From contig NZ_RHNZ01000013.1 in assembly GCF_003946395.1 (NCBI RefSeq), forward strand, positions 1 to 64,000: 64,000 bases of DNA. Reading direction: 5' to 3'. Made by a program: the position numbers and the translations under genes. Under the pieces are notes generated by a model. That model saw only the letters and a list, made by a program, of their open reading frames with translations, was not told the DNA's origin and made no database searches. Source of the DNA: Levilactobacillus fuyuanensis. Lineage in GTDB: Bacteria > Bacillota > Bacilli > Lactobacillales > Lactobacillaceae. The number at the start of each line of letters is the position of its first letter. Position 1 is the stretch's first letter. Positions 1,501 to 47,488 of the stretch are shown piece by piece.

Positions 1501-3102
1501 ATGAAACATCTCGCCTATACCGCACCGTTAGTCCTACTTTTACTCCTCACCCTGAGTGGCTGCGGCAGCGCTGCCGGTAACACCACTAAGAATCGCACAC
1601 TTAATGTCACGCTTCCCAGCGAACCCGCCACCGCCGACCCCAACAAGTCGACCGATACCAACAGCGGGAGCGTGATCTCCCAGACCATGGAAGGTCTCTA
1701 TACTTATGATCAATCCGGCAAGATCGTTGCCGGCGTCGCCACTAAGGTGGTTAAACCCACCAACAACGGCAAAACATATACGTTTAACCTTCGTAAGACG
1801 GCCAAATGGGCCAACGGACAGCCCGTCACCGCACAAGACTTTGTCACGTCACTACGTCGCTGGGTCGACCCGAAGACCAAGGCCCAATACGCCAATAAGC
1901 TTTCCGCCATCAAAGGTTACGCCGCAATCCAAAACGGTAAGGCGGACCCCTCCACGTTCGGCGTGAAGGCCCTCAGCAAGACCAAGCTCCAGATCACGCT
2001 GAGTCAGGCCGTTCCCTACTTCGACGACCTCGTCTCCGACTACTATCCTCTGAACACTGCCACCGTGAAGAAGTACGGGCAGAAATACGGGACCAATGCC
2101 GCCAAGACCATGAGTAATGGCGCCTACAAGCTCGTCGGCTGGACCGGGAGTAACTCGTCCTGGACCTACGTCAAGAACACCCACTACTGGGATGCCAAAA
2201 ACGTGAAAATCAAGAAGGTCAAAGTTGACGTCACTAAGGATGAAAGTACCGCGGCCACGCTGTTCAAGAGCGGCAAGATCCAGGAAACGACCGTCAGTGG
2301 CCAATACGTCCGGGCCAATGCCAACAACAAGCAGCTCCACAAGACGCTGCAGGGCCGGCTACAGTACCTCTACGTCAACAGTAAGAAGACCGCAACCAAC
2401 TCCGAAAACTTGCGACAGGCCGTCTCCTACGTAACCAACCGGGAAACACTGACCAGCAAAGTCTTGGCGGATGGCTCCAAGCCCGCTCTCAACGCCGTTC
2501 CACGTGGTGATCAGACCAATCCAAAGACTGGTGAAGACATGGCAACCCAACTGGGAAATCTCCTGCCGACCGACGTTGCCAAGGCCAAGACGTACTGGGC
2601 TAAGTATTTGAAGGAAACCGGCAAGACTAAGGTCACCTTGAATCTATTGACCGACGACACCGATGATGACAAGCACGTCGGCACCTATCTCCAATCCGTG
2701 ATGGAAAAGAACTTCAAGGGTCTGACGGTCACCACGACCTCCATCCCCCACGCCCAACACGTGGCACGGGACTTCGCCGGCACCTTCGAACTAAACCTGA
2801 CCGGTTGGTCCACCAATTTACTAGATGCCTCAGACTTCTTAGACCTTGCGGCAAAAGACAACACGGTCAACTTCACCGGCTGGAACGATACCCCATTCAA
2901 CGCACTCCTAGCCAAGGCAGAAACTCAAACGGGCCTGGCCCGCTACAACACCTTAATGGATGCCAACCAACGCCTGATGGCGGTCAAAGGCTACATCCCA
3001 CTGTACCAGCCATCACAGGCCAAGCTCGTCAGCAAGGATGTCGGTGGCCTAAAGGATACGCTGTTGCACGGCGCGCAATATAAGTATGCGTACTGGAAGT
3101 AG
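1501..3102 (+). CDS. Peptide ABC transporter substrate-binding lipoprotein (OppA-like, orphan)
   Basis: This 533-residue protein belongs to solute-binding protein family 5 (SBP_bac_5). It starts with a lipoprotein signal (hydrophobic LVLLLLLTLSGC, cysteine near residue 21), so it should be anchored on the outer face of the membrane. The family's N-terminal features follow: SEPATADPNKSTDTNSGSV and the WANGQPVTAQDFVTSLRRW segment. Length and architecture match oligopeptide-binding OppA proteins. No permease or ATPase gene is nearby, so it would have to share an Opp system encoded elsewhere. The T-box in its leader implies induction when one particular aminoacyl-tRNA runs short, so it probably scavenges peptides that supply that amino acid. 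The ATG at 1501 follows an AGGAGG ribosome binding site. A hairpin repeat begins one base after the stop codon. Confidence 0.9.
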   Translation: MKHLAYTAPLVLLLLLTLSGCGSAAGNTTKNRTLNVTLPSEPATADPNKSTDTNSGSVISQTMEGLYTYDQSGKIVAGVATKVVKPTNNGKTYTFNLRKTAKWANGQPVTAQDFVTSLRRWVDPKTKAQYANKLSAIKGYAAIQNGKADPSTFGVKALSKTKLQITLSQAVPYFDDLVSDYYPLNTATVKKYGQKYGTNAAKTMSNGAYKLVGWTGSNSSWTYVKNTHYWDAKNVKIKKVKVDVTKDESTAATLFKSGKIQETTVSGQYVRANANNKQLHKTLQGRLQYLYVNSKKTATNSENLRQAVSYVTNRETLTSKVLADGSKPALNAVPRGDQTNPKTGEDMATQLGNLLPTDVAKAKTYWAKYLKETGKTKVTLNLLTDDTDDDKHVGTYLQSVMEKNFKGLTVTTTSIPHAQHVARDFAGTFELNLTGWSTNLLDASDFLDLAAKDNTVNFTGWNDTPFNALLAKAETQTGLARYNTLMDANQRLMAVKGYIPLYQPSQAKLVSKDVGGLKDTLLHGAQYKYAYWK

Positions 3103-3103
3103 A

Positions 3104-3219
3104 GAGTGGAGCAAGCCGCTTAGATTCTGAGCATTAACGTCATTAAGTGCCCGCTCGGTGGAACCGAGCCGGTGCTTAATGGGGTTAAGCGCAGGAATCT
3201 GGCTTGCGCAACTCGTTTC
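3104..3219 (+). repeat. Paired-hairpin repeat, locus A unit 1
   Basis: The unit begins GAGTGGAGCAAGCC immediately after the oppA-like stop codon and ends GGCTTGCGCAACTCGTTTC. GAGT/ACTC, GCAAGCC/GGCTTGC and AGATTC/GAATCT form nested stems around the conserved segments CTGAGCATTAACG and GGGTTAAGCGCAG and a variable apical hairpin. The same plan recurs at 18.6, 23.6 and 47.4 kb with different but still complementary arms. Confidence 0.85.
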
Positions 3220-3225
3220 AGACCA

Positions 3226-3361
3226 GAGTGTGAAGAAGGGCGGTAGGTCCTGAGCATTAACGTAGCTAAGTGCCTGCTTGGCTGGGTTAAGCGCAGGGAC
3301 CTGCCCGACTGAACACGTTTCAGCAGCCGCATATTTCCGGATATCGTGGCGAGAGCAAGTC
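3226..3361 (+). repeat. Paired-hairpin repeat, locus A unit 2 plus tail
   Basis: This second unit runs from GAGTGTG to ACACGTTTC (3226-3321), with the stem AGGTCC/GGACCT and the same conserved inner segments. It is followed by a tail, GCCGCATATTTCC then TGGCGAGAGCAAGTC, that is also present after locus B (to about 23,857). The rest of the gap, to 3624, holds no recognisable gene, only C-rich, low-complexity sequence. Confidence 0.85.
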
Positions 3362-3624
3362 TAACGAACCAAACAAAACTAACCAGCAACAACGCTTCAA
3401 ACCAAAGTAAAACCAAGTTATCATCACGCACACCCAAGCCGCCCGTACCCCAAGCCCCAGTCCACAGCCACCACCAAGACATCCTCAAATGTTTCCGGCG
3501 ACTGTGATCTCGATGCTTCAGGTCTGTGCGGCGCCTCACCAGAACTATGTATCAAACCAAACCATAACGATTTCTATACATTCTCACCTATATAATCACG
3601 ACACAAAATTCAGGAGGAATTTAT

Positions 3625-5101: not shown

Positions 5102-6217
5102 CTAGAATCGACGCTGCATCTGCCGAGACAATTCATCGGTGGCCTTCATCGCAGAAAAGACATCGCGGGCGCTCACCGGAAAGCCCATGTTGTGGATGGT
5201 TTCTCCGGATTGGACCGTCAGTTTGGCAACCTTCATCAGATCCTCATCACTGGCCTCATCCAAATGAAGGTCGGCCAAGGTCGTTGGCAACCCTAGGTCG
5301 GCTTCAAAGTCCAGATAACGTTGGAATTCGGCATCGGTGGCTCCCTCCAAAACCAAGTTGAGAAGTGTCCCGAACGCCACCTTTTGCCCGTGTGATAGCT
5401 TATGCACGTCGCCGGAGAGCGCGGTCAGACCATTCTGGAAGCTATGAGCCGCAGCCAGGCCCGAGCTCTCGGCCCCAACACCACTCAGAAGAATATTGGC
5501 CTCGATGATATGATTCAACGCCGGCGTAACCACATGATCCGCGGCTGCGGACACGGCTTGGCCAGTGTATTTGAACAACAGTGACTCACACTTCTCGGCA
5601 AGGGCTAACCCGTCGGCCGTCTGGTCGGTCTGTAAGGGTAGCAGCGTGGTGGCTCGGGGCCGTGCGACCGTCTGCGCCTCAACGTTGGTCGACAGCGCGT
5701 CCGCAATCCCGTCGACCAGAAAACGCACGGGTGCTCCGGCAATCACGGTCGAATCCACTAGTACCAAGTCGGGGTTCTTGTCATAGAATTGGTACTTCAA
5801 GAACTCCCCATTGGGTGAATAGATGACGCTCAACCGCGTGCACGGCGAATCGTTCGATGCCAGCGTAGGCACAATCACGACGGGCACGTGGAGCTGATCG
5901 CCGACGGCCTTGGTCGTATCGTTGGTCTTTCCACCGCCTAGAGCGATGACGAATTTGGCATCCCTAGCCTCTCCGATAGCTTGAATCCGTGCAATTTCTT
6001 CCGGAGAACTCTCGCCGTTAAAGTGGATATGCTCAATCTTGAGCCCGTCCGCCGTCAGATGATGATAGAACTGCCCACCCACTAATTCCCAAACGATATC
6101 GTCGGCAATCAATAGGCCACGGTTACCAAACGGCGCAATGTAGCGGGCCGCGTGCTGCAGAAGCTGGTCACCCTGAACGTAGGTCGAGGGACTCGCAAAT
6201 GCTGTAATCATTTCCAA
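5102..6217 (-). CDS. gldA: Glycerol dehydrogenase (iron-containing alcohol dehydrogenase family)
   Basis: This 371-residue NAD-dependent enzyme oxidises glycerol to dihydroxyacetone, or reduces it in reverse, in the cytoplasm. The N-terminal domain holds the nucleotide-binding loop ALGGGKTNDTTKA and the PTLASNDSPCT segment. The C-terminal helical domain holds the three expected metal ligands: the Asp of DGIADALSTNVEAQ, the His of AAHSFQNGL and the His of KLSHGQKVAFG. Length and motifs fit GldA rather than the longer alcohol dehydrogenases. The ATG at 6217 is preceded by GAGGAGG. The gene is monocistronic, running away from the origin with its own terminator; no glycerol kinase or dihydroxyacetone kinase gene is adjacent. 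Confidence 0.92.
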   Translation of the reverse strand: MEMITAFASPSTYVQGDQLLQHAARYIAPFGNRGLLIADDIVWELVGGQFYHHLTADGLKIEHIHFNGESSPEEIARIQAIGEARDAKFVIALGGGKTNDTTKAVGDQLHVPVVIVPTLASNDSPCTRLSVIYSPNGEFLKYQFYDKNPDLVLVDSTVIAGAPVRFLVDGIADALSTNVEAQTVARPRATTLLPLQTDQTADGLALAEKCESLLFKYTGQAVSAAADHVVTPALNHIIEANILLSGVGAESSGLAAAHSFQNGLTALSGDVHKLSHGQKVAFGTLLNLVLEGATDAEFQRYLDFEADLGLPTTLADLHLDEASDEDLMKVAKLTVQSGETIHNMGFPVSARDVFSAMKATDELSRQMQRRF

Positions 6218-6326
6218 TACCTCCTCATTGAACTAGCTCCCATTCTAAAGAGTTCTCACAAAATCCAGCGACCAACGACTTCGCTTCTGCGATTTAAGAT
6301 AGCCAATGCCCGCAACTAGTCAAAAA

Positions 6327-6355
6327 GGAGACTGCAGGTGTTCGCCACAGTCTCC
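6327..6355 (-). terminator. Second hairpin after the rpsR operon
   Basis: GGAGACTG pairs with CAGTCTCC, and the minus strand continues TTTTTGAC. It is a possible back-up terminator beyond the rpsR terminator, in the gap before gldA. Confidence 0.55.
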
Positions 6356-6423
6356 TCAAAAATGATCCATGAAGTCTCTACACAACTACCAAGCATATTA
6401 CGCGCATTTACGCTAATTTTGCC

Positions 6424-6457
6424 AAAAAAAAAGAACCAACACCTGAGTGTTAGTTCT
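6424..6457 (-). terminator. Terminator of rpsF-ssb-rpsR
   Basis: On the minus strand AGAACTAACACTCAGGTGTT continues into GGTTCT and a run of eight or more T, directly after the rpsR stop codon. Confidence 0.85.
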
Positions 6458-6464
6458 TAATAGA

Positions 6465-6701
6465 CTACTCTTCGCTAACGAATGGCATTAAGCCCATGAT
6501 CCGTGAACGCTTGATAGCAATAGTTAACTTACGTTGGTTCTTGGCACTAGTACCAGTAACCCGGCGAGGTAAGATCTTACCCCGTTCGGAGATAAACCGA
6601 CGTAATAAGTCAGTATCCTTGTAATCAATGTATTCAATGTGGTTGGCTGCAATAAAATCAACCTTCCGACGGCGACGGCCGCCACGACGTTGTCCTGCCA
6701 T
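6465..6701 (-). CDS. rpsR: 30S ribosomal protein bS18
   Basis: This is the 78-residue small-subunit protein S18, with the basic N-terminus [14 protein letters not shown], the [17 protein letters not shown] core and the [20 protein letters not shown] end. S18 binds the platform of the 30S subunit as a heterodimer with S6. It is the last gene of the rpsF-ssb-rpsR operon, 28 bases after ssb, which is the standard Firmicute arrangement. The start ATG is preceded by GAGGAGG. Confidence 0.98.
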
Positions 6702-12043: not shown

Positions 12044-14581
12044 TTAAGCTTCCGGTGCGTCAGAATCCGGCGTCACTGGTGTTGAATCGGTTGCGGGGGC
12101 GTCACCGTCCGTCGTTTCACCGTCAACCTCAGCGCTGTCGTCTTCCTTATCGACCTTGGCCATAGTGGCCACAGCGGTATCGTCACCTAGCCGAATCAGG
12201 TGGACCCCTAAGGTTGCCCGACCGGTCTCGGAAACATCGCTCCCGTTGAAGCGAATCATGACACCCTTGTTGGTGACTAACATCAGGTCTTCATCACCGT
12301 CCAAGGTGGTCAATCCGGCTAACGGCCCGTTCTTCTCAGTCACGTTGACGGTCTTGATACCTTTACCGCCACGTCCCTTGATTGGGTATTCGCTAGCTGG
12401 TGTTTGCTTTCCATAACCCTTTTCGGAAATGACAAACACCCGACTGTCCGGCTTGAGGACGCTGGCCCCGATCACGTAATCACTCTCACGCAACCGAATC
12501 CCGCGAACCCCAGTTGCCGACCGGCCCATTGACCGCACGTCCTTAGCCGCAAAGCTAACGGCGTAGCCCAGATGGGTTCCGATGATCATGTTGGCATCAC
12601 CATTGATGATGTCGACATCGATCAATTCGTCGTCATCCTTCAGGTTAATGGCCTTCAGACCATTGCTGCGGATGTTGGCAAATTCATCGACTGGCGTCCG
12701 TTTGACCGTTCCTTGAACCGTCGTGAAGAAGATGTCGCGTTCGGCATTTTCTCCCGGATTGGCCACGTTGATCACGGCCTGCACATGCTCGTTGTTGTTG
12801 ATACCAAGCAAGTTAATGACCGGAATCCCTTTGGCCGTCCGCCCGTATTCAGGGATTTCATACCCCTTCATCCGGTAGACCTTCCCGGTGTTGGTGAAGA
12901 ACAGAAGCATGTCATGCGTGGACGTTGCCACGAGGTGTTCGATGAAGTCATCTTCATGGACACCCATGCCTTGAACCCCTTTACCACCACGGTTTTGGGC
13001 TTTAAATTCAGACGTTGGTAACCGCTTGATGTAGCCGTTGTGAGTCAATGAGACCACCACGTCTTCTTCGGCAATTAAGTCTTCGTCTTCTAGACTCAAG
13101 ACTTCACCGACCATCAATTCAGTCCGCCGCGCGTCACCGAACTTGTTTTGAATTTCCATCAATTCGTCGTAAATGATGCTCTGTTGGCGTTCCTTGGATG
13201 CCAAGATTTCCTTGTAATCCTTGATGTTCGCCATGACATCATTGTATTCCTTCTCGACCTTTTCACGTTCCAGACCGGTCAGACGAACCAACCGCATGTC
13301 CAAGATGGCCTGCGATTGCTTATCTGACAGACTGTAACGTGTCATTAATTCATTTTTCGCCACTTCAGCGGTCTGTGACTGCCGGATAATGGTGATGATT
13401 TCATCGATGTGATCGAGCGCGATCCGCAACCCTTCCAGGATGTGGGCCCGAGCTTCAGCCTTCCGTAATTCGAAGGCCGTCCGCCGTTTGATAACTTCCA
13501 ATTGGAAGTCCAAGTAGTACTGCAAGATTGGCTTTAAGCCCAGCACTTTAGGCGCACCCTTGACGATGGCCAACATGTTGATCCCAAACGAGGTCTGCAT
13601 GAGGGTCATCTTATACAGGTTATTCAAAATCACTTCGGCACTGGCGTCACGCCGGACGTCAATAACGATCCGCATCCCCGTCCGGTCGGTTTCATCGTTG
13701 ACATCAGTAATGCCTTCGATGCGCTTGTCCCGAGCCAATTCGGCGATCCGTTCGATCAGCTTGGCCTTGTTGACCATGTAAGGAATTTCCGTGGCCACAA
13801 TGCGTTGCTTACCGTTCTTTTCTTCTTCAATATCGACTTTCGCCCGTAAGGTAATGGTGCCCTTCCCGGTCTCGTAAGCCCGGCGAATAGCAGCCTTCCC
13901 CATAACGATCCCACCGGTTGGGAAGTCGGGGCCTGGTAAGACCTCCATCAACTCAGCCAGACTGGCATCGGGGTTCTTCATCAAGATGTGTAGGGCACTG
14001 ATGACTTCCGTCAGGTTATGTGGCGGAATGTTCGTGGCCATCCCCACAGCGATCCCGGAAGCCCCATTAACTAACAGGTTGGGGAATCGTGAAGGGAGCA
14101 CAACGGGTTCGCGTTCGGACCCATCATAGTTATCTTGAAAATCAATCGTATCTTTGTTAATGTCACGCAGCATTTCCATCGCGATCTTACTCAACCGCGC
14201 TTCGGTATACCGCATGGCAGCGGCCCCATCACCATCGACAGAACCAAAGTTCCCATGACCGTCCACTAACATGTAGCGGTACGAGAAGTCTTGGGCCATC
14301 CGCACCATGGATTCGTACACGGCAGAATCACCATGTGGATGGTATTTCCCGAGGACATCCCCGACCATCCGGGCAGATTTCCGGAATGGCTTATCGGGGG
14401 TGATCCCGAGTTCGTGCATATCGTATAGGATTCGACGGTGGACTGGCTTCAAACCATCCCGCACATCTGGTAACGCCCGTTGCACAATCACACTCATCGC
14501 GTAATCCAAGAAGGATGTTCGCATGGTTTGTGAAAGGTCAACGTCGGTAATCCGACCTATATTGTAATCTTGATCAGCCAA
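12044..14581 (-). CDS. gyrA: DNA gyrase subunit A
   Basis: This 845-residue gyrase A subunit cuts and rejoins the DNA gate for negative supercoiling. The winged-helix region holds the quinolone-determining stretch [20 protein letters not shown], with wild-type Ser and Glu at the common resistance positions, and the active tyrosine in [11 protein letters not shown]. The C-terminal beta-pinwheel carries the GyrA-box stretch ([11 protein letters not shown]) and related repeats such as [13 protein letters not shown], and the tail is acidic ([10 protein letters not shown]). It starts at ATG 14,581, 21 bases after gyrB, and ends the dnaA-side cluster in the usual order. Confidence 0.98.
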
Positions 14582-14602
14582 ATTTTTACCCTCCGTTCTT
14601 CA

Positions 14603-16552
<1,950 letters not shown>

Positions 16553-17707
16553 TTAATCCTCCTTTGTTGCCGGATCGCCACTGGGGGCAGATCCATCCGC
16601 CACCACCGTCCCGTTAGCCACATGAAAAATGGTCGGGTCTTTAATCAGCTGGCGGGTAATCCCGCTCAGACTGGTGGTGGTAATAAACGTCTGTACTTTA
16701 TCCTGGATAGCCTTCAGCAGATGGGTCTGCCGGGCATCATCCAATTCAGAAAGGACATCATCAAGTAACAAGACCGGATATTCTCCGGTCTCTTCTTTCA
16801 TTAGGTCAATCTCAGCGAGCTTGACGCTTAACGCCGTGGTTCGCTGCTGACCCTGGGAGCCGAACGTTTGCACGTTCTTCCCGTTGACCCGAAAATGCAG
16901 ATCATCTCGGTGCGGGCCCACCAGAGTTGTTCCTCGGTAGAGCTCCTTGTCCTGATGTTCTTTATAAAGCTGCGTTAGCGCCGCACAAATGGTATCCGGG
17001 TCCGTCAATTGGTCCTCTGGTACCTGGGTCGCGTAGTGAAACGTCAGCTCTTCTTTTTGCTGAGAGATCTCGGCGTGAATCGCCTGCGCCCAGTGCTCCA
17101 GCTTATGTAACATCCGCAGCCGCTGGGCAATGATCTCCGCACCATACGCGGCCAGTTGGTCGGTTAAGACCGACAAAAACAACAGGTCACGATTTTGCTT
17201 ATGCTGTAAATCCTTGAGGTACCGGTTCCGTTGCTTTAGTAGCGTCCGGTACTGACTCAAGTTATACAGGTAGCGCGGATTCATCTGGCCAAACTCCATG
17301 TCCATGAAGCGCCGCCGAACAGTCGGGGCACCTTTGACAATGGCGAGATCTTCCGGTGCAAACAAAATCACATTGAGCTGGCCGATATATTGTGACAGTC
17401 GAGCCTGCTCAAGGTGATTCACTTTGGCGCGCTTACCTTGACGTGAGAACGTTAATTCTAGGGGCACCGACCCCACCGACTTCACGACTCGTCCGCTAAC
17501 CTTCGCCGTTTTGGCTTCCCAGTTAACGAGGTCGTGATCATTGGCCGTTCGGTGACTTCGCGTCAACGCAAGAACGTAGATTGCCTCTAATAGATTGGTC
17601 TTGCCCTGCGCATTTTCTCCCAATAAGACGTTAATCCCGGGTCCTAACTCGAGATCAGCACTGGGATAATTCCGAAAATGCTGCAGCTGCAGTTCTTGCA
17701 AATACAT
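16553..17707 (-). CDS. recF: DNA replication and repair protein RecF
   Basis: This 384-residue SMC-like ATPase has Walker A in [14 protein letters not shown], the ABC signature region in [17 protein letters not shown] and Walker B in [13 protein letters not shown]. RecF acts with RecO and RecR to load RecA at single-stranded gaps. The start ATG overlaps the yaaA stop codon by one base, a coupling also seen in other Firmicutes. The last 15 residues ([14 protein letters not shown]) are a polar extension. Confidence 0.98.
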
Positions 17708-17934
17708 TATTCACCCTGCTTTGAGCGTATAAAAAATAATCCTGTACCAGGTACTTCCACCGTATCACCAGGATACAGCTTGCGGCCCCGCCGGTTGTCC
17801 GGCTCGTCGTTGATATTAACGGTGTTTTCCCGCAAATACCACTTGGCTTGACCGCCAGTACTGATAATGGATTCTTCTTTGAGTAACTGGCCTAAAGTAA
17901 TGTAGGGCGTCTCAATGAAAACTTCTTTTTTCAC
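17707..17934 (-). CDS. yaaA: S4-like RNA-binding protein YaaA
   Basis: This 75-residue protein has an S4-type RNA-binding fold ([33 protein letters not shown], ending [16 protein letters not shown]). The small S4-like YaaA is conserved between dnaN and recF in Firmicutes and is implicated in 50S ribosome assembly. Translation starts at GTG 17,934 behind GAGGGG. A TATAAT at 17,964-17,969 on the minus strand probably starts the yaaA-recF-gyrB-gyrA transcript. Confidence 0.93.
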
Positions 17935-17969
17935 AATTTCACCCCTCTATATTCTTCTTTTATATTATA

Positions 17970-18486
17970 CCGCATTTTAGGGAAAAGTACAGTTTAACTG
18001 CTTGATTTTTGCGTTCTCAGCCGATTTAAGCCCTTCCTGATATTTTTGGTAAAAAACCGGTAAATTTGCTCTAATCAAAAAATAGCGGCCTTTTAACGAT
18101 TTTTTTGTTTTTTCAGGCTTTTTTTCAAGCTTTTCTGAAAGTTGCTGAAAATCACGAAGCATATGCGCACGCAAGTAACGAATTTCACGTGGAAATTGTT
18201 GAGATTTTGACGTTGTTTTCAGAAATTGTGACTGTTGTAGTTGAATTTCGCGTTTTTGAGGGTGTTTTCTGATTCACTCTCGTTTTTGATACGTGCTATT
18301 TGAGAGGTCTGGGTGATTTTCTCTATTTAATTGACGATGGCCTAGCTTATTTTGGCGTGCTGCCATTGTTAAGCGTTTGTGGGAGAAGCGCTTTTCCTTC
18401 CTTTGGGTTGATTTCGATTTATTTTCTCGGAACCTTCTCTCTAATTTTATTCTGAGTTCGAGACTTTCCTCTAATTTCACATTGCC
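17970..18486. other. AT-rich gap between yaaA and the locus C repeats
   Basis: No supported gene is present. It holds poly-T/poly-A stretches, short repeats of the form TTTTCAGGC/CTGAAA, and a near-palindrome AATTTCACGTGGAAATT (18,180-18,196) that resembles a decayed parS. A 65-codon frame on the minus strand (17,977-18,174) lacks a ribosome binding site. The gap is unusual for a position normally occupied by a short dnaN-yaaA spacer. Confidence 0.6.
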
Positions 18487-18565
18487 GAAACGTGCTCCAC
18501 AAGACAGACTCCTGCGCTTAACCCCAATAAGGAAAAAGCCAAGTTCGGGCTTTCCACTATGATTT
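18487..18565 (-). repeat. Paired-hairpin repeat, locus C truncated unit
   Basis: Only the 3' half of the element is present: GGGTTAAGCGCAGG, then the arm ending TCTTGTGGAGCACGTTTC (minus strand). The partner arm and GAGCATTAACG segment are missing. About 117 bp separate matching positions in this and the next unit, including shared flanks, so it looks like a tandem duplication followed by decay. Confidence 0.75.
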
Positions 18566-18605
18566 TTTACTAGTTCAAAGACTTTCCTTCTAATTTCACG
18601 TTGCC

Positions 18606-18721
18606 GAAACGTGCTCCACAAGGCAGGTCCCTGCGCTTAACCCCATTAGGCAAAATCCAGGTCCGGGATTTTCTGCCTAATGACGTTAATGCTCAGGACC
18701 TAACCGCCTTGTTCCGCACTC
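18606..18721 (-). repeat. Paired-hairpin repeat, locus C full unit
   Basis: Reading the minus strand, the unit runs GAGTG...ACAAGGCGGTTAGGTCC, TGAGCATTAACGTC, a variable hairpin with a GCAGAAAATCC/GGATTTTGC stem, GGGTTAAGCGCAG, GGACCTGCCTTGT and CACGTTTC. It lies just after the dnaN terminator in the same orientation as dnaN. Confidence 0.85.
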
Positions 18722-18729
18722 TTTTTTAC

Positions 18730-18761
18730 AAAAAAAGCGCCACCCCTTTTGAGGTGACGCT
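18730..18761 (-). terminator. Terminator of dnaN
   Basis: AGCGTCACC pairs with GGTGGCGCT and is followed by seven T on the minus strand, 17 bases beyond the dnaN stop codon. Confidence 0.88.
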
Positions 18762-18777
18762 CCGTTAGTTTCTAAAT

Positions 18778-19917
18778 TTAGAAAGTCCGTACCGGTGTGA
18801 TCAGTTGAATAAAGTTGCTGGTATCTTCCGTTGGAACCAACGTGAATGGCCGTAATGCTGACGTAAAGGCTACGCGGATCGTCGTTTGACCGAATGACCG
18901 TAAGGCATCCTTCATGTAGTCAGGGTTAAAGGAAATTTCGAGGTCGTCCCCGGTAATTTCCTTAGGATCCAAGGCTTCTTCAACATTCCCGACATCTGGG
19001 GAGTTACTGAAGATGGTGACCTGGTTGTCCGCTGGCGTCAGCGTCAGCTTAACCACGTTGTTCCGGGATTCGTGAGACAACAGTGAGGCCCGTTCAACAG
19101 CTGCCAATAATTCTGGCGCTTCGAATTCGACCGTCGTCGAGGCATCCTTTGGAATCAACCGTGAGGTGTCTGGGTAGTTCCCTTCCAGTAAGCGTGAGTA
19201 GAACGAGGTGTCCCCTAGTAAGAACAACACCTGGTTTTCTGAGAACTGCATCTTCACGTCGCTGTCATCGTCACCAATCATCCGAGAAAGTTCAGTCAAA
19301 CTCTTCCCAGGAATGATCACATCAAAGGCTGCACTACTTGGCGTAGGTAGCTCAATCTGACGTTGTGATAACCGGTGACTATCCGTGGCGACCGCCAAGA
19401 ATTGATTGTCAGCCAACACAAAGTGAACCCCGGTCAAGATTGGGCGACTTTCTTGGTTGGAAACGGCAATGACCGTTTGGCTGATCAATTCCTTGAAGAC
19501 GGCACCAGACAACACAACGGAATCTGCAGCGTCAACCTCTGGCAAGTGCGGGTAGTTGTTGGCATCTTGCCCGTTAATATTAAAGGCTGCGGACCCGGAC
19601 GTAATCTCTGTTTGGAATGCGTCCTTAACCGTCACCGTCATGGTTTGTTCTGGCAAACGTTTAACAATTTCACTGAAGAAACGAGCCGTTAAAACAATGG
19701 CGCCTGGTTCATCAATGGTTAAGCCAATATCTGGATCATCCGCCCGAATCAGAGATTCGATTGAAATGTCAGCGTTCGAACCAGTCAATAAGAGGCCCGC
19801 ATCACTAGCAACGATCTTGATCCCCGTTAAAATGGGAATTGTGGTCTTAGACGAAATGGCCCGTGACACATTGTTGAGTTCCTTAATGAAGGCCGCCCGG
19901 TTAATGGAAAATTTCAT
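18778..19917 (-). CDS. dnaN: DNA polymerase III beta sliding clamp
   Basis: This 379-residue protein has three repeated clamp domains (MKFSINRAAFIKELNNVSRAI; GVHFVLADNQFLAVATDSHRL; NPDYMKDALRSF) and ends PVRTF. It forms the dimeric ring that tethers polymerase to DNA. I chose ATG 19,917, which has AAGGAG 11 bases upstream, over an in-frame GTG at 19,929 that overlaps the ribosome binding site. It follows dnaA with a 270-base gap that contains DnaA boxes. It ends in its own terminator rather than continuing into yaaA. Confidence 0.97.
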   Translation of the reverse strand: MKFSINRAAFIKELNNVSRAISSKTTIPILTGIKIVASDAGLLLTGSNADISIESLIRADDPDIGLTIDEPGAIVLTARFFSEIVKRLPEQTMTVTVKDAFQTEITSGSAAFNINGQDANNYPHLPEVDAADSVVLSGAVFKELISQTVIAVSNQESRPILTGVHFVLADNQFLAVATDSHRLSQRQIELPTPSSAAFDVIIPGKSLTELSRMIGDDDSDVKMQFSENQVLFLLGDTSFYSRLLEGNYPDTSRLIPKDASTTVEFEAPELLAAVERASLLSHESRNNVVKLTLTPADNQVTIFSNSPDVGNVEEALDPKEITGDDLEISFNPDYMKDALRSFGQTTIRVAFTSALRPFTLVPTEDTSNFIQLITPVRTF

Positions 19918-19949
19918 AAGATGAGACACTCCTTTTTAGTGGTGCGTAG

Positions 19950-20092
19950 TTTACTTAATTAAAAGAAAAAGACAGTAGCCGTAGTAGAGCAGTGTATTCT
20001 GTGGATAACTTGACGAAATAGCCTGTGTTACTAGCTTTTCCACCTGTGGATAACTTGTGGAAAACTTTAGAGCTATTCTCTTTTTATCCACA
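19950..20092. other. oriC part 2: DnaA boxes and likely unwinding region between dnaA and dnaN
   Basis: Consensus boxes TGTGGATAA/TTATCCACA occur at 20,000-20,008, 20,045-20,053 and 20,084-20,092, with a weaker TGTGGAAAA at 20,056-20,064. Next to the first box lie in-phase triplets TAG-CCG-TAG-TAG (19,976-19,987), which resemble DnaA-trio elements, then AT-rich sequence (19,951-19,970). In Bacillus subtilis the duplex-unwinding element is in this same gap. Confidence 0.8.
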
Positions 20093-20133
20093 CGCTCTGT
20101 TAGCCATACGTCTATCATACCCTAGTTGGTCAC

Positions 20134-20185
20134 AAAAAAACCGTCGCGAGTCTGCTAACTTGTCGCGCTGACTCGGACGGTTTCG
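20134..20185 (-). terminator. Terminator of dnaA
   Basis: AACCGTC-CGAGTC arms pair with GACTCG-CGACGGTT, followed by seven T on the minus strand, directly after the dnaA stop codon. Confidence 0.88.
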
Positions 20186-20187
20186 TC

Positions 20188-21546
20188 CTAGCGCCGCAAT
20201 TCATCTTTCAGATTATCGATGTCCTTTTGCAATTCGGCATCGGTCTTCAGTGAATCCTGGATTTTATCGTAGGCGTGGATGACCGTGGTATGGTCTTTAC
20301 CGCCAAATTCGTTCCCGATACGTGGGAGTGACGCTTCCGTCAATTCACGTGACAGGTACATGGCGATTTGACGGGGCATGACAATGGCCTGCTTGCGTTT
20401 CTTTCCTTTCAAATCCTTGAGAGACACGTGGAAGTAGTTTGCCACACGGTCCTGAATGACCGGAATCGTGATGGCATCCGTGGCGTTGGCCAAGTTGAGG
20501 CTCTTGAGCGCTTCAGCGGCTAGGTCAGTCGTGATCGGTTGATGCATCAACTGATGGTAGGCTTGAACTCGGGCCAATGCGCCTTCAAGTTCCCGCACGT
20601 TAGAGTCGATTTGCCCGGCGATGTAGCTTAGCGTGTCGTCGGGGATGTCGATCTGATCGGCGTCGGCTTTGTTGCGGAGAATGGCGATTCGCGTTTCCAA
20701 GTCCGGTGGTGTAATGTCGACCGATAAGCCCCAAGCAAACCGCGAAACGAGGCGGTCCTGCAACTTAGGAATTTCATTTGGTAGTCGATCGGAAGTCAGG
20801 ACGATCTGCTTCTCATCATCATAAAGCGCATTAAATGTATGGAAGAACTCTTCTTGGGTTCCTTCCTTATTAGCGAAGAACTGAATATCATCGACCAGTA
20901 GCAGATCAACGTTACGATACTCCTGACGGAACTGCTCCTGCGTCCGGGTTTGAATCGCATTGATAAAGTCGTTCGTGAAGGCTTCGCTAGTGACATATTT
21001 GACCTTGGTATCCGGGCGATCTTCAAGCATTTTGTTGCCGATCGCATGCATCAAGTGGGTTTTACCAAGGCCCACGCCACCGTAGAAGAACAGCGGATTA
21101 TACATCACGCCGGGTTCTTCGGAGACAACTAAGGCCGCTGCGTGGGCCATTTGGTTGCCTTTTCCGATGACGAAAGTGTCAAAAGTGTAGCGGGAGTTCA
21201 GCGCGGTTTCCTTCATGAAAGTCGGTGTTGGCTCAGCAGTGGCCGGTTCCTCGGGGGTCGCGGTCTTTGCTTTGCGAGTTGCCTGTTGTTGGCGTTCGCT
21301 TTCGATGATCAAAATCGGCTGAATATCTTCGTGAGCGGCTTGGTATGCGTATTCTACCAATTGCTGGTCCAGGTGTTGGTGGGTCCAGTAATCACGATGC
21401 AGGGGTGACGGGAGTTCCAACGTTAACTTGTTGCCATCTAAGGCAATCGGCTTGGCAGTTTCAATCCAAGTCTTGTAGGTCGTTGGTGTGTTATTCTCCT
21501 CGAATAACTCCTTGATATCAGTCCATAAAGTTACCATATCTGGCAC
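20188..21546 (-). CDS. dnaA: Chromosomal replication initiator protein DnaA
   Basis: This 452-residue AAA+ initiator has an N-terminal interaction domain ([13 protein letters not shown]), a variable linker (about residues 85-110), and an ATPase domain with Walker [16 protein letters not shown], Walker [10 protein letters not shown] and the arginine-finger region [11 protein letters not shown]. The C-terminal DNA-binding domain carries the signature [16 protein letters not shown]. It binds the boxes on either side of its own gene and melts the origin. Translation starts at GTG 21,546, eight bases after AGGGGG. Boxes in its promoter region imply autoregulation. Confidence 0.98.
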
Positions 21547-21639
21547 TGATGTATCCCCCTATTAATTATTTAGATAGTCATTTCCCATTTGGGCGTAAGA
21601 CCCCCAAACGAAAACGTAAGTCCAGTGTAGCATGAAGAA

Positions 21640-21920
21640 AAAAAGTTTTCCACAGGGTATTTTGAACTGTGAATAATTGTTTCACAGAAAGTGGATAGAG
21701 TTATCCACAGGCAGTCGAATGTCTGTGGATGGTTTTTAACAATTTGAGTTATGCACACCCGTCTGTGGACTTAAAACGTGACATTGACAAGTGTTTCACA
21801 AGTTATCCACAGAATCCACTGAACCTAGAAAAGCAAAATAAACAGGCTGTGGAACGGTGGATAACCGAGTGGGAAAGTCTGGAAAAACTTTTTAACAATT
21901 TTAGAGTTATCCACAGCCAA
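21640..21920. other. oriC part 1: DnaA-box cluster upstream of dnaA
   Basis: Perfect boxes TTATCCACA lie at 21,701-21,709, 21,803-21,811 and 21,907-21,915. Near-matches lie at 21,668-21,676 (TGTGAATAA), 21,724-21,732, 21,749-21,757 (TTATGCACA), 21,764-21,772 and 21,856-21,864. The array separates the divergent dnaA and rpmH transcription units. This is the standard bacterial origin arrangement, with core genes leaving in both directions. Confidence 0.92.
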
Positions 21921-21997
21921 AGTGCATGAAACAAATTTCTTCGGGGAGAACTTTTTTATGGAAATTCAAAGTTCCTATTTCCATTCCGCCGAATTTA

Positions 21998-22006
21998 TGC
22001 TAATAT
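21998..22006 (+). promoter_or_regulatory. Extended -10 promoter element for rpmH
   Basis: TGCTAATAT (hexamer 22,001-22,006) lies about 75 bases upstream of rpmH; no strong -35 is visible. Confidence 0.5.
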
Positions 22007-22082
22007 GTTCAGGAAATGCATTTAGTATTTGTCTGGCTCCACCAGATAAAAAATAGTCATAGTTAAGAGAGGAGATTTTACG

Positions 22083-22217
22083 ATGAAGCGCACTTTCCAA
22101 CCAAAGAAACGTCACCGTTCACGTGTCCACGGCTTCCGCAAGCGTATGAGCACTAGCAATGGCCGTCAAGTATTAGCACGTCGCCGTCAAAAGGGACGTA
22201 AAGTATTGTCTGCATAG
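22083..22217 (+). CDS. rpmH: 50S ribosomal protein bL34
   Basis: This 44-residue, very basic protein L34 reads [20 protein letters not shown] at its start and [12 protein letters not shown] at its end, the invariant family pattern. It is an rRNA-binding component of the large subunit. The ribosome binding site is AGGAG at 22,070. It heads the conserved rpmH-rnpA-yidC-jag block on the opposite side of the origin from dnaA. Confidence 0.98.
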
Positions 22218-22244
22218 GCCGCTGATAGTTCAGTGGTCTTTTTA
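22217..22244 (+). terminator. Hairpin between rpmH and rnpA (attenuator)
   Basis: GGCCGCTGA pairs with TCAGTGGTC (two wobbles) around TAGT, followed by a T run. It begins at the last base of the rpmH stop codon. Partial termination here would give more L34 than RnpA. Confidence 0.7.
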
Positions 22245-22321
22245 TTTTATCTGCGAGAAGACTGGGACCCTAATCTCTCGCGGACTGTTCAACAAATCGT
22301 TGAGAATTTTGGAGATGCACC

Positions 22322-22678
22322 ATGCGAAAATCTTACCGCATTAAGAAAGAAGCGGAATTTCAGCAGGTCTTTGAAACCAGAAATTCGGTCGCAAACCGGC
22401 AATTTGTGGTGTATTCAATGGAAAAACCTGATCAATTACATTTTCGAGTTGGCATTTCGGTCGGTAAGAAAATTGGGAACGCGGTCCACCGTAATTGGGT
22501 GAAGCGCCGGATTCGGCAGAGTCTACTCGAGTTAAAACCCTACCTCAAACAGGATGTGGATTTTCTCGTAATTGCTCGGCCCCGGGCGGACGGCATTTCC
22601 ATGACTGATGCGAAGAGCAGCCTGATTCATGTTTTGAAACTGGCAAAACTGCTGGATTCCAACTATAGCGAGGAATAA
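22322..22678 (+). CDS. rnpA: Ribonuclease P protein component
   Basis: This 118-residue protein subunit of RNase P supports the RNA subunit in trimming the 5' ends of tRNAs. It starts [17 protein letters not shown] and carries the RNR signature [18 protein letters not shown]. It lies 104 bases after rpmH and two bases before yidC, so rnpA and yidC are probably translationally coupled. Confidence 0.97.
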
Positions 22679-22680
22679 AA

Positions 22681-23514
22681 GTGAAAAAGTACAAACGTAC
22701 CCTACTTATGCTAGGTATTGTGAGCTTAGTCTTTATCCTTTCCGCTTGTAGCAATGCACCAATCACCAATCATAGTACTGGGATTTGGGACGGCTGGATC
22801 GTTCTGAACTTCTCCCGGGCAATCATTGGGTTGGCCAACATGTTCGGCGGGAGCTACGGTATCGGGATTATCATCTTTACGGTTATCGTGCGGATTATTT
22901 TACTCCCACTGATGATTTTCCAGACCCGGAGCATGCGGAAGACGCAGGACTTACAGCCACAATTAAAAGCTTTACAGAAGAAATACTCCTCAAAAGATCG
23001 CGAAACGATGCAAAAGATGCAGGCCGAACAGCAAAAGCTGTATTCGGAAGCGGGCGTTCACCCCATGTTGGGTTGCCTGCCTGCCGTCGTTCAGTTGCCA
23101 ATCATCTGGGCGTTGTATCAAGCTATCTGGCGGACGGCCGTTCTGCGGTCTGGGAGCTTCCTGTGGTTGCAATTGGGCCACAAAGACCCGTATTTCATCC
23201 TACCTGTCTTGGCTGCTGTTGCCACGCTGATTAGTTCGTGGTTAAGCACCAAGTCAATGCCAGAGTCCAACTCAATGAGTACGATGATGATCGTCGGGAT
23301 GCCGGTAGTGGTCTTCTTCACTGCCCTGAACGTGCCATCATCACTGTCCTTATACTGGACGATTTCCTACGTGTTCCAAGTTGGCCAAACCTTGTTAATT
23401 CAAAATCCGTGGAAGATTCAAGCGGAACGCGATGCCAAGGAAAAGGAAAAGAACGAACACGAACGCACGGTCAAGAAAGCAATTCGACGTGCAAAGCAAA
23501 GCAAACGCAAGTAA
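22681..23514 (+). CDS. yidC: Membrane protein insertase YidC (lipoprotein form)
   Basis: This 277-residue insertase folds membrane proteins with or without SecYEG. The N-terminus has a lipoprotein signal (LVFILSAC, Cys near residue 23), followed by YidC core segments: GIIIFTVIVRIILLPLMIFQ with the groove arginine, a cytoplasmic coiled hairpin (residues about 80-118), then PAVVQLPIIWALYQAIW and three more membrane helices. The tail is highly basic (VKKAIRRAKQSKRK) and contacts ribosomes. It follows rnpA by two bases and ends in a terminator. Confidence 0.96.
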   Translation: MKKYKRTLLMLGIVSLVFILSACSNAPITNHSTGIWDGWIVLNFSRAIIGLANMFGGSYGIGIIIFTVIVRIILLPLMIFQTRSMRKTQDLQPQLKALQKKYSSKDRETMQKMQAEQQKLYSEAGVHPMLGCLPAVVQLPIIWALYQAIWRTAVLRSGSFLWLQLGHKDPYFILPVLAAVATLISSWLSTKSMPESNSMSTMMIVGMPVVVFFTALNVPSSLSLYWTISYVFQVGQTLLIQNPWKIQAERDAKEKEKNEHERTVKKAIRRAKQSKRK

Positions 23515-23539
23515 ACAGTTAGCATAAATGCATTTTATT

Positions 23540-23569
23540 GGCGCAGGACTTCGGTTCGGCGCCTTTTTT
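23540..23569 (+). terminator. Terminator of rpmH-rnpA-yidC
   Basis: GGCGC pairs with GCGCC around a 14-base loop, followed by six T, 25 bases after the yidC stop codon. Confidence 0.8.
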
Positions 23570-23576
23570 GTACAGA

Positions 23577-23694
23577 GAGTGGAGCAAGGCGATTAGGTTC
23601 TGAGCATTAGGGAGCTAAGGTCTTCTGTTCGGCCTCGCCGGACAGGAGGACTTATCTTTCTAAGCGGAAGAACCTGCCTTGCGGAACTCGTTTC
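23577..23694 (+). repeat. Paired-hairpin repeat, locus B unit 1
   Basis: GAGTGGAGCAAGGCG ... GCCTTGCGGAACTCGTTTC forms the outer stem and AGGTTC/GAACCT the inner one. Here the conserved GAGCATTAACG is altered to GAGCATTAGGG, and the opposite strand is TCTAAGCGGAAG, so both sides of this segment changed. The apical hairpin is GTCTTCTG...-type and unrelated to locus A. Confidence 0.85.
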
Positions 23695-23699
23695 GACCA

Positions 23700-23857
23700 G
23701 AGTGTGAAAGAGGGTGGTAGGTCCTGAGCATTAACGTAGATAAGTGCCAGCTTGGCGGAGCCGAGCCGGTGCTTATCTGGGTTAAGCGCAGGGACCTGCC
23801 CGACTGAACACGTTTCAGAGGCCGCATATTTCCCAAGTGTTCTGGCGAGAGCAAGTC
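23700..23857 (+). repeat. Paired-hairpin repeat, locus B unit 2 plus tail
   Basis: GAGTGTGAAAG to ACACGTTTC (23,700-23,816) is nearly identical to locus A unit 2, apart from the apical hairpin and single arm bases. The tail GCCGCATATTTCC...TGGCGAGAGCAAGTC is shared with locus A. From 23,858 to the jag promoter I see no gene. Confidence 0.85.
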
Positions 23858-24065
23858 CGGTTCTCTAAGCTAGAACGGCTACTAACAACTTCAGCGGGCC
23901 AGCCCAATCCGCATTCCCCAAAAACACACAAAGCCCGCCCAGCACACTAATACCTAATACATTTCTCAAAACAACTCGCACCATTTCGCGTTTCTTAACA
24001 GCGTCTCAGAGTCTCATCTTCCCAATCATTTTCAGACTGAATTACGGGGTGCGTCGCAAGCATTA

Positions 24066-24074
24066 TGGTATACT
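24066..24074 (+). promoter_or_regulatory. Extended -10 promoter of jag
   Basis: TGGTATACT (hexamer 24,069-24,074) lies 35 bases upstream of the chosen jag start codon. It falls inside a longer open frame that begins at 24,049, which argues against that earlier start. Confidence 0.6.
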
Positions 24075-24108
24075 GAATTTTAGCGAAAAAGACATGGAGG
24101 AATGGACG

Positions 24109-24903
24109 ATGACAATCTACACGGGCAAAACGGAAGAGGCAGCGATTGCAGCGGGGTTAACCGCGCTCAACAGTCGCCGCGACCAAGTGGTAATTAAGGT
24201 GGTCGCCACTCCGCGGAAGGGTTGGCTGGGAATCGGTCGGCGCGATGCCATGGTGGATATTGTCCTAAAGACGGTTGCGGAAGATTCATCCGCCGCACCA
24301 GCGCCAGAATCAGCAGCGTCAGTGGGGAGTTCAACGGCTTCAATGAGTTCGGCAGTTGCTTCAGTAGCGCCAGTAGCCGCCGCACCAGCTGCGGCGGCGA
24401 CGTCAGCCACAGCAGAACCCACAGTGACCCCTCAGGAGCGCCGTAAGCGACGTGAGGCGGCCATCGAAGCTGTTCAGGACTACTTGGCAACCATCGTCGA
24501 ACAACTGGGCATAGACGCCACGATAGACGTTGAATCGGGTGCGCACCGCCAAGTCCGGTTGGTCTTTACCACGGATAAGGAAGGACTCCTGATCGGCAAG
24601 CACGGTCGGACCATCAACGCCTTACAGAGCTTGGCCCAACTATTTTTGAATCATCACGGTGCTGCTCACGTGGAATTGGAGCTGGACGTTGCGAACTACC
24701 GGGAACGGCGTGCGGCTACGTTAGGTCGCTTGGCGGAGAGCACAGCACGTGAGGTCGTCGCGACCGGGAAACCCATTTATTTGGACCCGATGCCATCGTT
24801 TGAACGCAAGCAGATTCACGCCGTGTTGTCGAAGAATCGCTACGTCACGACGTATTCTGCGGGGAAGGAACCCCATCGCGCGGTCGTCATCGAACCGGCA
24901 TAA
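24109..24903 (+). CDS. jag: RNA-binding protein KhpB (Jag/SpoIIIJ-associated)
   Basis: This 264-residue protein has an N-terminal Jag_N domain (MTIYTGKTEEAAIAAGLTAL, with KGWLGIGRRDA), an Ala/Ser/Pro/Val-rich linker (about residues 65-115), a KH domain with LLIGKHGRTINALQSLAQLF and a C-terminal R3H domain (RRAATLGRLAESTAREV, NRYVTTYSAGKEPHRAVVI). KhpB/Jag binds RNA, often with KhpA, and influences cell division and envelope genes. I chose ATG 24,109 (GGAGG upstream) over 24,049 because the promoter -10 lies between them. The alanine-rich linker is longer and more repetitive than in B. subtilis. Confidence 0.95.
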   Translation: MTIYTGKTEEAAIAAGLTALNSRRDQVVIKVVATPRKGWLGIGRRDAMVDIVLKTVAEDSSAAPAPESAASVGSSTASMSSAVASVAPVAAAPAAAATSATAEPTVTPQERRKRREAAIEAVQDYLATIVEQLGIDATIDVESGAHRQVRLVFTTDKEGLLIGKHGRTINALQSLAQLFLNHHGAAHVELELDVANYRERRAATLGRLAESTAREVVATGKPIYLDPMPSFERKQIHAVLSKNRYVTTYSAGKEPHRAVVIEPA

Positions 24904-47200: not shown

Positions 47201-47233
47201 AAGAGCCTGGAACAAAATTCCAGGCTCTTTTGC
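47201..47233 (+). terminator. Terminator of the old yellow enzyme gene
   Basis: A perfect 12-bp stem AAGAGCCTGGAA/TTCCAGGCTCTT is followed by TTTG. Confidence 0.88.
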
Positions 47234-47252
47234 TACACAATCTTGCATGGCT

Positions 47253-47370
47253 GAAACGTGCGCCAAAAGACAGCTGGTTCCGCTTAAAATTGCTAACCAA
47301 ACAATCCAAGTTCGGGATTATTCGGTTATTGACGTTAATGCTATAGGCTGTTTCCCAATCTTATACAGTC
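47253..47370 (-). repeat. Paired-hairpin repeat, locus D unit 2
   Basis: Reading the minus strand, ACAGCC...TATAGCATTAACGTCAATAACC, an AATAATCC/GGATTGTT hairpin, TTTTAAGCGGAACC, AGCTGT and GCGCACGTTTC. It is more diverged than the other units but keeps the segment order. Confidence 0.7.
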
Positions 47371-47488
47371 GAAACGTGGGACAGCAGGCAGCTAGCTGTG
47401 CTTAACCCCGTAAGGAGAATAATCCAAACCCAGGATTTTTCCCCTTATGACGTTAATGCTCACTAGCTAATCGCCTGCTGTCCCACTC
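47371..47488 (-). repeat. Paired-hairpin repeat, locus D unit 1
   Basis: On the minus strand GTGGGACAGCAGGC pairs perfectly with GCCTGCTGTCCCAC, and AGCTAG pairs with CTAGCT. GTGAGCATTAACGTC and GGGGTTAAGCACAG flank a CCTTATG-type apical hairpin. Nearly all arm bases differ from locus A, B and C units, yet pairing is complete. Confidence 0.85.

What the first reader, a model, noticed from the sequence alone, without database searches (positions are those of the whole stretch)
3104..3361. Repeat family of paired hairpins with compensating stem changes at four loci
Units at 3,104 and 3,226 (plus), 18,606 (minus), 23,577 and 23,700 (plus), and 47,371 and 47,253 (minus) share the order GAGTG, arm, TGAGCATTAACG, variable apical hairpin, GGGTTAAGCGCAG, complementary arm, CACGTTTC. 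The arms differ but stay paired: GCAAGCC/GGCTTGC, GCAAGGC/GCCTTGC, ACAAGGC/GCCTTGT and ACAGCAGGC/GCCTGCTGT for the outer stem; AGATTC/GAATCT, AGGTTC/GAACCT, AGGTCC/GGACCT and AGCTAG/CTAGCT for the inner. That covariation argues that structure, as RNA or cruciform DNA, is selected. Units come in twos, and all four loci are intergenic. I could not match it to a named family.
Basis: seen in the sequence. Interest (0 to 1): 0.78.

Follow-up and report, generated by a model that had tools for sequence, protein, structure and literature searches.

The report
Paired-hairpin repeat family behind lactobacillus genes
A roughly 120-letter DNA repeat that folds into a long hairpin sits just behind dozens of genes in lactobacilli, and its many copies change sequence while keeping the two halves of the hairpin matched, which suggests that the folded shape matters to how this apparently mobile element survives.

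Summary
The window (Levilactobacillus) holds the seven claimed units plus a right-half copy; the genome has 71 end-to-end model matches. The family was hit in 33 of 35 genus genomes and 15 further genera, with 2-120 hits in those 15 genomes. Covariation is strong: 36 of 42 pairs (other genera) and 25 of 42 (Levilactobacillus) exceed a tree-based null. G-T pairs exceed A-C mismatches 2.5-3.5-fold (1.1-1.3 in shuffles), so one strand, as RNA or single-stranded DNA, carries the constraint. Units mostly lie behind a gene on the same strand (203 of 240 loci). Sites are gained and lost between species, and at 26 of 37 shared sites the hairpin looks exchanged for another variant. In one genome, units with near-identical interiors have unrelated but mostly matched outer stems. 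No Rfam match; no paper found in seven searches; two enzyme families tested do not track it. Best reading: an undescribed, non-autonomous mobile hairpin family of the BOX/ERIC kind with strong exchange between copies. "Units come in twos" holds for a minority. New variant of a known kind; mover and cause of stem matching are open.

The parts
3102..3219 (+). full unit 1 (left half, apical hairpin, right half); its first G is the last base of the stop codon TAG (3100-3102) of the solute-binding-protein gene 1501-3102
3226..3321 (+). full unit 2, short apical hairpin
3322..3400 (+). 3' spacer/tail (GCCGCATATTTCC...GAGAGCAAGTC) shared with other loci; end approximate
18606..18721 (-). full unit directly after the terminator of dnaN
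18487..18558 (-). extra right-half copy that begins near the apical loop (left half not recognisable); bounds approximate
23575..23694 (+). full unit 1 after the terminator of the yidC-like gene; variant core TTAGGG/TTTCTAA
23700..23816 (+). full unit 2
23817..23880 (+). 3' spacer/tail; end approximate
47371..47488 (-). full unit; here against the direction of both neighbouring genes
47253..47370 (-). degenerate second unit, weak fold
47201..47235 (.). two-way intrinsic-terminator-like hairpin next to the 3' end of the units; a similar tail plus terminator recurs at a number of own loci
   Evidence: read by eye

Best explanation
An undescribed family of small, non-autonomous mobile hairpin elements of Lactobacillaceae, working like BOX or ERIC elements. 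SHOWN: copies are dispersed (2 to 120 hits per genome outside the genus, 71 end-to-end matches in the own genome), present at some orthologous sites and absent at others, often in or just behind stop codons or behind terminators, mostly pointing with the upstream gene, with a rather conserved core (mostly GAGCATTA / TAAGCG) and varying but matched outer and apical stems; the fold is constrained on one strand; right half plus spacer can be tandemly repeated from near the apical loop; at many shared sites the hairpin differs from its orthologue far more than the upstream flank does. INFERRED: these differences are exchange between copies; the single-stranded hairpin is what an unidentified enzyme recognises when the element moves; most loci are transcribed as part of a 3' untranslated region; breaks at the hairpin tip repaired from other copies cause the exchange, the core-deleted short forms and the right-half duplications.
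For: 71 end-to-end matches in the own genome, hits in 33 of 35 genus genomes and 16 of 63 sampled genera, 2-120 hits in 15 other-genus genomes. Empty or lost sites: behind dnaN no unit in 23 of 30 loci read; L198 and L199 sites in L. parabrevis; L246 and L249 sites in a sister species of G037, at one of which the empty site reads ...AGATAATGG and the filled one ...AGATAGAGCG. Orientation: between co-directional genes 117 with against 26, p 6e-15; between divergent genes 11 of 240 against 21 of 108 background gaps. Stop TAG ending on the unit's first G: 21 of 53 and 21 of 49 units with a stop within 60 bases. Covariation. One-strand signal. Exchange: at 26 of 37 shared sites a paralogue is closer in at least one direction; at 20 of them the unit is 49-93% identical while the 60 bases upstream are 90-100% identical. 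At the 11 unreplaced sites 1 pair-keeping double change against 32 single ones, 14 of them pair-breaking.
Against: No clean target duplication and no enzyme were found: Y1 transposase does not track the repeat (absent in G001, G004, G011, G016, G030, G032, G036, which have many copies; present in G021, which has none) and no reverse transcriptase is in the own genome. Most copies in the own genome are not recent (median best paralogue identity 0.93). Placement is not uniform: 10 of 64 own, 10 of 46 L. parabrevis, 17 of 123 and 32 of 104 other units had neither a near stop nor a T-run in my scan, and 0 of 18 L. parabrevis units with a near stop show the TAG overlap. The upstream flanks used to judge exchange include coding and terminator sequence, which is conserved anyway, and the downstream tails differ too (median 0.72). 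The matched yet site-specific outer stems in G037 are not what a simple copy-and-paste element predicts. No hits among phage, plasmid or viral records.
Confidence: 0.56

Rival explanations
1. A host-beneficial structured RNA in the 3' untranslated region (for example an mRNA-stability or processing element bound by a protein at the conserved core), kept by selection at each site; its spread by recombination is secondary.
For: Strong covariation and one-strand wobble signal; placement near stop codons in the sense direction; in G037 outer stems are site-specific yet 659 of 702 scored pairs are Watson-Crick; unreplaced orthologous stems differ at 4.1% of positions, unpaired positions at 6.8%, with 19 G-T against 8 A-C states.
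Against: No shared function among the neighbours at the four window loci (solute-binding protein, dnaN, yidC-like, FMN oxidoreductase; not tested genome-wide); two genus members gave no hit; core-deleted short forms and losses occur at the same sites; a number of units follow a terminator (10, 9, 38 and 7 in four sets).
Confidence: 0.25
2. The matching of the arms is made by DNA metabolism, not by selection: polymerase template switching within the hairpin copies one arm onto the other (quasi-palindrome correction, recalled), so that any variant becomes matched.
For: Both arms differ together between copies with identical interiors; matched changes are frequent at shared sites (233 double and 62 single pair-keeping against 36 single and 18 double pair-breaking).
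Against: It should erase the mismatched core, left bulge and the three mostly U.G or G.U pairs, which persist; it does not predict the G-T over A-C excess; 17 of the 26 replaced L. parabrevis hairpins match another own copy at 0.90 or more.
Confidence: 0.1
3. A SINE-like retro-element moved through its RNA by a reverse transcriptase; right-half-only copies are 5' truncations.
For: Structured one-strand constraint; right-half copies start near the apical loop.
Against: No RVT_1 match in the own genome or in L. parabrevis, both rich in copies; in the arrays inspected the right-half copies lie in tandem behind a full unit, which fits local duplication.
Confidence: 0.04

Closest known systems
BOX elements of Streptococcus pneumoniae (PMC3049150, abstract and sections 5 and 6 read)
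   Same: Dispersed small hairpin repeat of a Gram-positive bacterium; 125 elements in one genome; modular, with an inner module present in none to many copies; over-represented between convergent genes; predicted to fold when transcribed.
   Different: Here one long hairpin with a mismatched core; the repeated module is right half plus spacer; strong sense orientation behind genes; spread over many genera; hairpins differ at fixed sites. BOX has known terminal inverted repeats and target duplication, not established here. Sequence relation to BOX was not tested.
ERIC/IRU/RU-1 of enterobacteria (PMC2229807, passages read)
   Same: About 127 bp, base-paired stem-loop as transcript, TA at the termini, an effect on mRNA stability reported when co-transcribed; movement by a transposase only hypothesised.
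   Different: Another phylum (recalled); stop-codon overlap, tandem right-half copies and exchange of hairpins were not mentioned in the passages read. Sequence relation not tested.
REP/BIME with RAYT Y1 transposases (PMC2817692 and PMC3733652, search listings only; movement as single strand recalled)
   Same: High-copy extragenic hairpins that may move as single strands.
   Different: REPs are 20-40 bp (PMC3733652 listing); here about 120 bp and no tracking with Y1 transposase genes.
Integron attC sites (recalled)
   Same: Imperfect hairpin with an extra-helical base, one strand acting, often behind a stop codon; the common core GTTAAGC / GC(A)TTAAC fits the recalled R-box consensus.
   Different: The AAC/GTT triplet is not conserved across the family: its pairs vary.

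Membership tests
MITE / BOX-ERIC kind (non-autonomous small mobile hairpin) | under about 200 bp per unit, many dispersed copies | tested here: met
   71 end-to-end matches of about 120 bp in the own genome
MITE / BOX-ERIC kind (non-autonomous small mobile hairpin) | filled and empty sites between relatives | tested here: met
MITE / BOX-ERIC kind (non-autonomous small mobile hairpin) | terminal inverted repeats matching an IS | not tested
   no IS-end library was at hand
MITE / BOX-ERIC kind (non-autonomous small mobile hairpin) | target-site duplication, TA | tested here: inconclusive
   5' junction after TA at one site (stop TAA to TAG) and at a TTGTA site, but six bases behind the stop at another; 3' junctions too diverged
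BOX | boxA-boxB(n)-boxC sequence modules | not tested
   no BOX sequence was compared
ERIC | ERIC consensus sequence | not tested
   no ERIC sequence was compared
REP-RAYT | resident Y1 transposase in genomes with many copies | tested here: not met
   seven copy-rich genomes lack PF01797; the own genome has 4 matches
attC | conserved AAC/GTT triplets | tested here: not met
   the core pairs vary between AU, GC and CG
retro-element | reverse transcriptase in the genome | tested here: not met
   PF00078 has no match in G000 and G007
known Rfam RNA | match at gathering score | tested here: not met
   0 matches in the window and in 8 loci

The most novel reading that the evidence does not exclude
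Outer stems are remade as a matched pair each time a unit settles or its interior is exchanged. In one genome (G037) 47 of 53 units have different outer arms of about 14 nt; in its larger subfamily (35 units, 32 distinct arms) 27 of 34 scored stems are fully Watson-Crick and 3 more only add wobbles, while units with 90-100% identical interiors have outer arms no more alike than random pairs (0.50 against 0.53). This would be a mobile element with a process that creates or swaps both arms of a stem in a coordinated way, so that each site has its own barcode-like stem.
Probability: 0.15. Interest if true: 0.88.

Novelty: new variant of a known kind. Interest (0 to 1): 0.62.

Why it matters
It is a large set of paralogous, covarying hairpins inside single bacterial genomes, so it can serve to test what selects for hairpin structure in 'parasitic' repeats such as BOX and ERIC: movement, effects on transcripts, or DNA repair. 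Change of the hairpin at a stable site and the uncoupling of outer and inner stems were not described in what I read or found in my seven paper searches. If the units are transcribed, the 3' ends of many genes in these food bacteria carry strong hairpins.

Tried and rejected
Rfam: nothing at gathering score; the sub-threshold rows are chance-level. Phage, plasmid and viral collections: no hit; the plasmid and phage searches used one 251-base query and the viral scans two exact patterns, so diverged copies could be missed. Y1 transposase and reverse transcriptase as partners: no tracking; other enzyme families were not tested. attC: rejected on the varying core. A T-box beside the inverted pairs in G036 was suspected from the letters, but Rfam gave no match, so it is not claimed. 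Origin of outer arms from local flanks: no excess of shared 8-11-mers over permuted loci. Papers: searches; no description of this family found, also not by six of its 12-mers (one unrelated paper); one repeat survey included Lactobacillus johnsonii (PMC2267715, one passage seen) and was not read further. Subscription journals are mostly not held.

Of the 26 'replaced' pairs 6 have upstream flanks under 0.70 identical and may pair different members of an array. Pair counts come from alignments fitted to model R1. One of five measures was weak (pairs with a change on both sides: 4 of 500 shuffles reached it). My covariation null copies the idea of R-scape, not the program, and recombination between copies breaks its tree assumption.

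Full report
OBSERVATION. Six of seven fold with z-scores of -6.1 to -11.2 against dinucleotide shuffles; the one at 47253 is degenerate (z -2.1). A unit is a single long hairpin: outer stem, four-base bulge on the left, inner stem, internal loop, short stem with a bulged A, apical stem of variable sequence. An extra right-half copy lies at about 18487-18558 on the minus strand.

EXTENT. A covariance model from eight window sequences finds 79 hits at E <= 0.001 in the own genome; 71 match the model end to end with E < 1e-13, a few of them with a lost or degenerate left half; four of the other eight are units read on the other strand. Among 118 relatives 48 are positive at E <= 1e-8: 33 of 35 in the genus, 14 further genera of the family and one genus of another family. 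Fifteen genomes outside the genus have 2 to 120 hits. No hit in plasmid, phage or viral collections, none at gathering score in Rfam.

STRUCTURE IS SELECTED. In 125 units from 100 loci 97.4% of cells pair against 75.2% in shuffles, with 1133 double changes against 310. In 105 distinct units from other genera the figures are 93.3% against 60.2%, and 1467 against 431. With a null that keeps the tree and the number of changes per column (my own script, modelled on R-scape; 123 and 103 sequences), 25 of 42 pairs are significant in the first set and 36 of 42 in the second; of 8001 column pairs tested in each, 0 and 2 non-structure pairs are significant, and these two lie between the outer helices and fit their extension. 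Pairs that fail mostly vary little; two in the second set (columns 38-143 and 53-127) are poorly paired there (32 and 52 cells unpaired).

WHICH STRAND. Over pairs that are mainly Watson-Crick, G-T and T-G cells outnumber A-C and C-A cells 118 to 34 (ratio 3.47), 96 to 38 (2.53) and 89 to 26 (3.42) in three alignments, where shuffled letters give 1.17, 1.13 and 1.30 (related counts). Three pairs in the Levilactobacillus set are mostly U.G or G.U. Double-stranded or cruciform DNA would not favour one strand; RNA, or single-stranded DNA of the unit's orientation, would.

PLACE. Pooled over 57 own loci, 94 named Levilactobacillus and Paucilactobacillus loci and 89 other-genus loci, the upstream gene is on the unit's strand at 203 of 240. 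Between genes running the same way, units run with them 117 times and against 26 times (p 6e-15); divergent gaps hold 11 of 240 units against 21 of 108 background gaps. Where a stop codon lies within 60 bases upstream, it ends exactly on the unit's first G (TAG-AG) in 21 of 53 and 21 of 49 units, in 5 of 31 own and 0 of 18 L. parabrevis units. Other units directly follow a T-run (10, 9, 38 and 7 in the own, L. parabrevis, named and other-genus sets), and 10, 10, 17 and 32 have neither in this scan. The window's 47371 unit runs against both neighbours.

MOBILITY. Behind dnaN the unit is present in the own genome and G017, shortened in G007 and G023, partial in G014; G033 has a short unit and G018 one on the other strand, which look like separate insertions; in 23 of 30 loci none was found by model or by eye. 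Near-clean empty sites exist for own loci L198 and L199 in L. parabrevis, where a different terminator-like hairpin stands in the gap, and for G037 loci L246:522, 6901, 7181 and L249:12725, 14472 in sister G125. At L249:14472 the empty site ends ...AGATAATGG and the filled one ...AGATAGAGCG: the unit follows the TA of the stop codon; at 12725 it starts six bases behind the stop. Right junctions are too diverged to show a target duplication.

MODULES. The arrays read have the form left half, right half, spacer, then (right half, spacer) repeated, then in some a second full unit; the repeated right halves begin near the apical loop. At the G037 loci inspected such copies carry the outer arm of their own locus, so they look like local tandem duplications. 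Short forms without the core occur at shared sites.

CHANGE AT FIXED SITES. Reciprocal flank matches give 39 shared sites between the own genome and L. parabrevis (G007), 37 with full-length units. Unit identity runs from 0.42 to 0.99. In 11 pairs the orthologue is closest both ways: there stems differ at 4.1%, unpaired positions at 6.8%, with 1 pair-keeping double change, 18 single pair-keeping, 14 single and 2 double pair-breaking changes. In the other 26 there are 233 double and 62 single pair-keeping against 36 single and 18 double pair-breaking changes. At 20 of these 26 the 60 bases upstream are at least 0.90 identical while the unit is 0.49-0.93; the tails downstream differ as well (median 0.72). 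Of 75 units with an orthologue only 17 have it as nearest neighbour, and one inner-arm variant (AGACTC) is in 11 of 46 G007 units but 3 of 64 own units. So most double changes over this span come with what looks like exchange between copies rather than stepwise compensation; this weakens, without excluding, a role of the fold at each site.

UNCOUPLED STEMS. In G037 47 of 53 units have distinct outer arms, and 659 of 702 scored outer pairs are Watson-Crick (10 G-T, 5 A-C, 28 other; 3 units skipped). In the larger subfamily (35 units) 27 of 34 scored stems are fully Watson-Crick, 3 more have only wobbles and 4 a mismatch; in the other 18 units 3 are fully Watson-Crick, 1 has wobbles only, 12 have mismatches and 2 were skipped. 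In the larger subfamily, pairs with apical identity of 0.9 or more (19 pairs) have outer-arm identity 0.50, against 0.53 for all pairs; correlation 0.04. L249:12725 and 14472 have identical interiors and different, matched outer arms. Two units do share everything (L244:18070, L250:13479). The arms are not taken from local flanks. The simplest account is gene conversion of interiors between older insertions with their own outer stems, plus something that keeps outer stems matched; a process that makes matched arms anew is the bolder reading.

MECHANISM AND RANK. I favour a mobile element of the BOX/ERIC kind whose single-stranded hairpin is needed for movement, with tip breakage and repair from other copies behind exchange, deletion and right-half duplication. 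Only the pattern is shown; mover, RNA and repair steps are inferred. The strongest rival is a host RNA element in the 3' untranslated region. Neither Y1 transposase nor reverse transcriptase tracks the family. In the library searched I found no description of it.

Noticed in passing
window 12044-24903: The window seems to span the replication-origin region: gyrase-sized genes, a RecF-like gene, dnaN, and yidC- and jag-like genes (Pfam for dnaN, RecF/SMC, 60KD_IMP and Jag/KH/R3H; the gyrase genes by position and size only).
   Followed up: partly
L242:3404-3763 and 6124-6483 (G036): Two near-identical inverted pairs of units, each about 360 bases, lie beside genes that read like a trp operon; a third kind of arrangement beside single and tandem units.
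   Followed up: no
window 47201-47235; L192, L193, L195, L198, L199, L204 and others: A recurrent terminator-like hairpin (AAAAGAGCCTGGGA...TCCCAGGCTCTTTT and variants) follows a number of units at a similar distance; its left arm resembles the left end of the unit (AAAAGAGTGGGACAAAA).
   Followed up: partly
L324:17619-17676, L381:1501-1558, L327:5249-5306: Core-deleted short forms of the hairpin (58 bases by the model) at sites where relatives have the full unit.
   Followed up: partly
G037:C1: Listed hits in this 2.5 Mb contig looked denser between about 0.6 and 1.5 Mb and mostly on one strand; the listing was incomplete, so no test was made.
   Followed up: no
A4 units, apical loops: Apical loops are often GNRA-like tetraloops or three-base loops closed by C-G (CGAAAG 13, CGAAG 11, CAAAG 11, CGCAG 6 and others).
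   Followed up: partly
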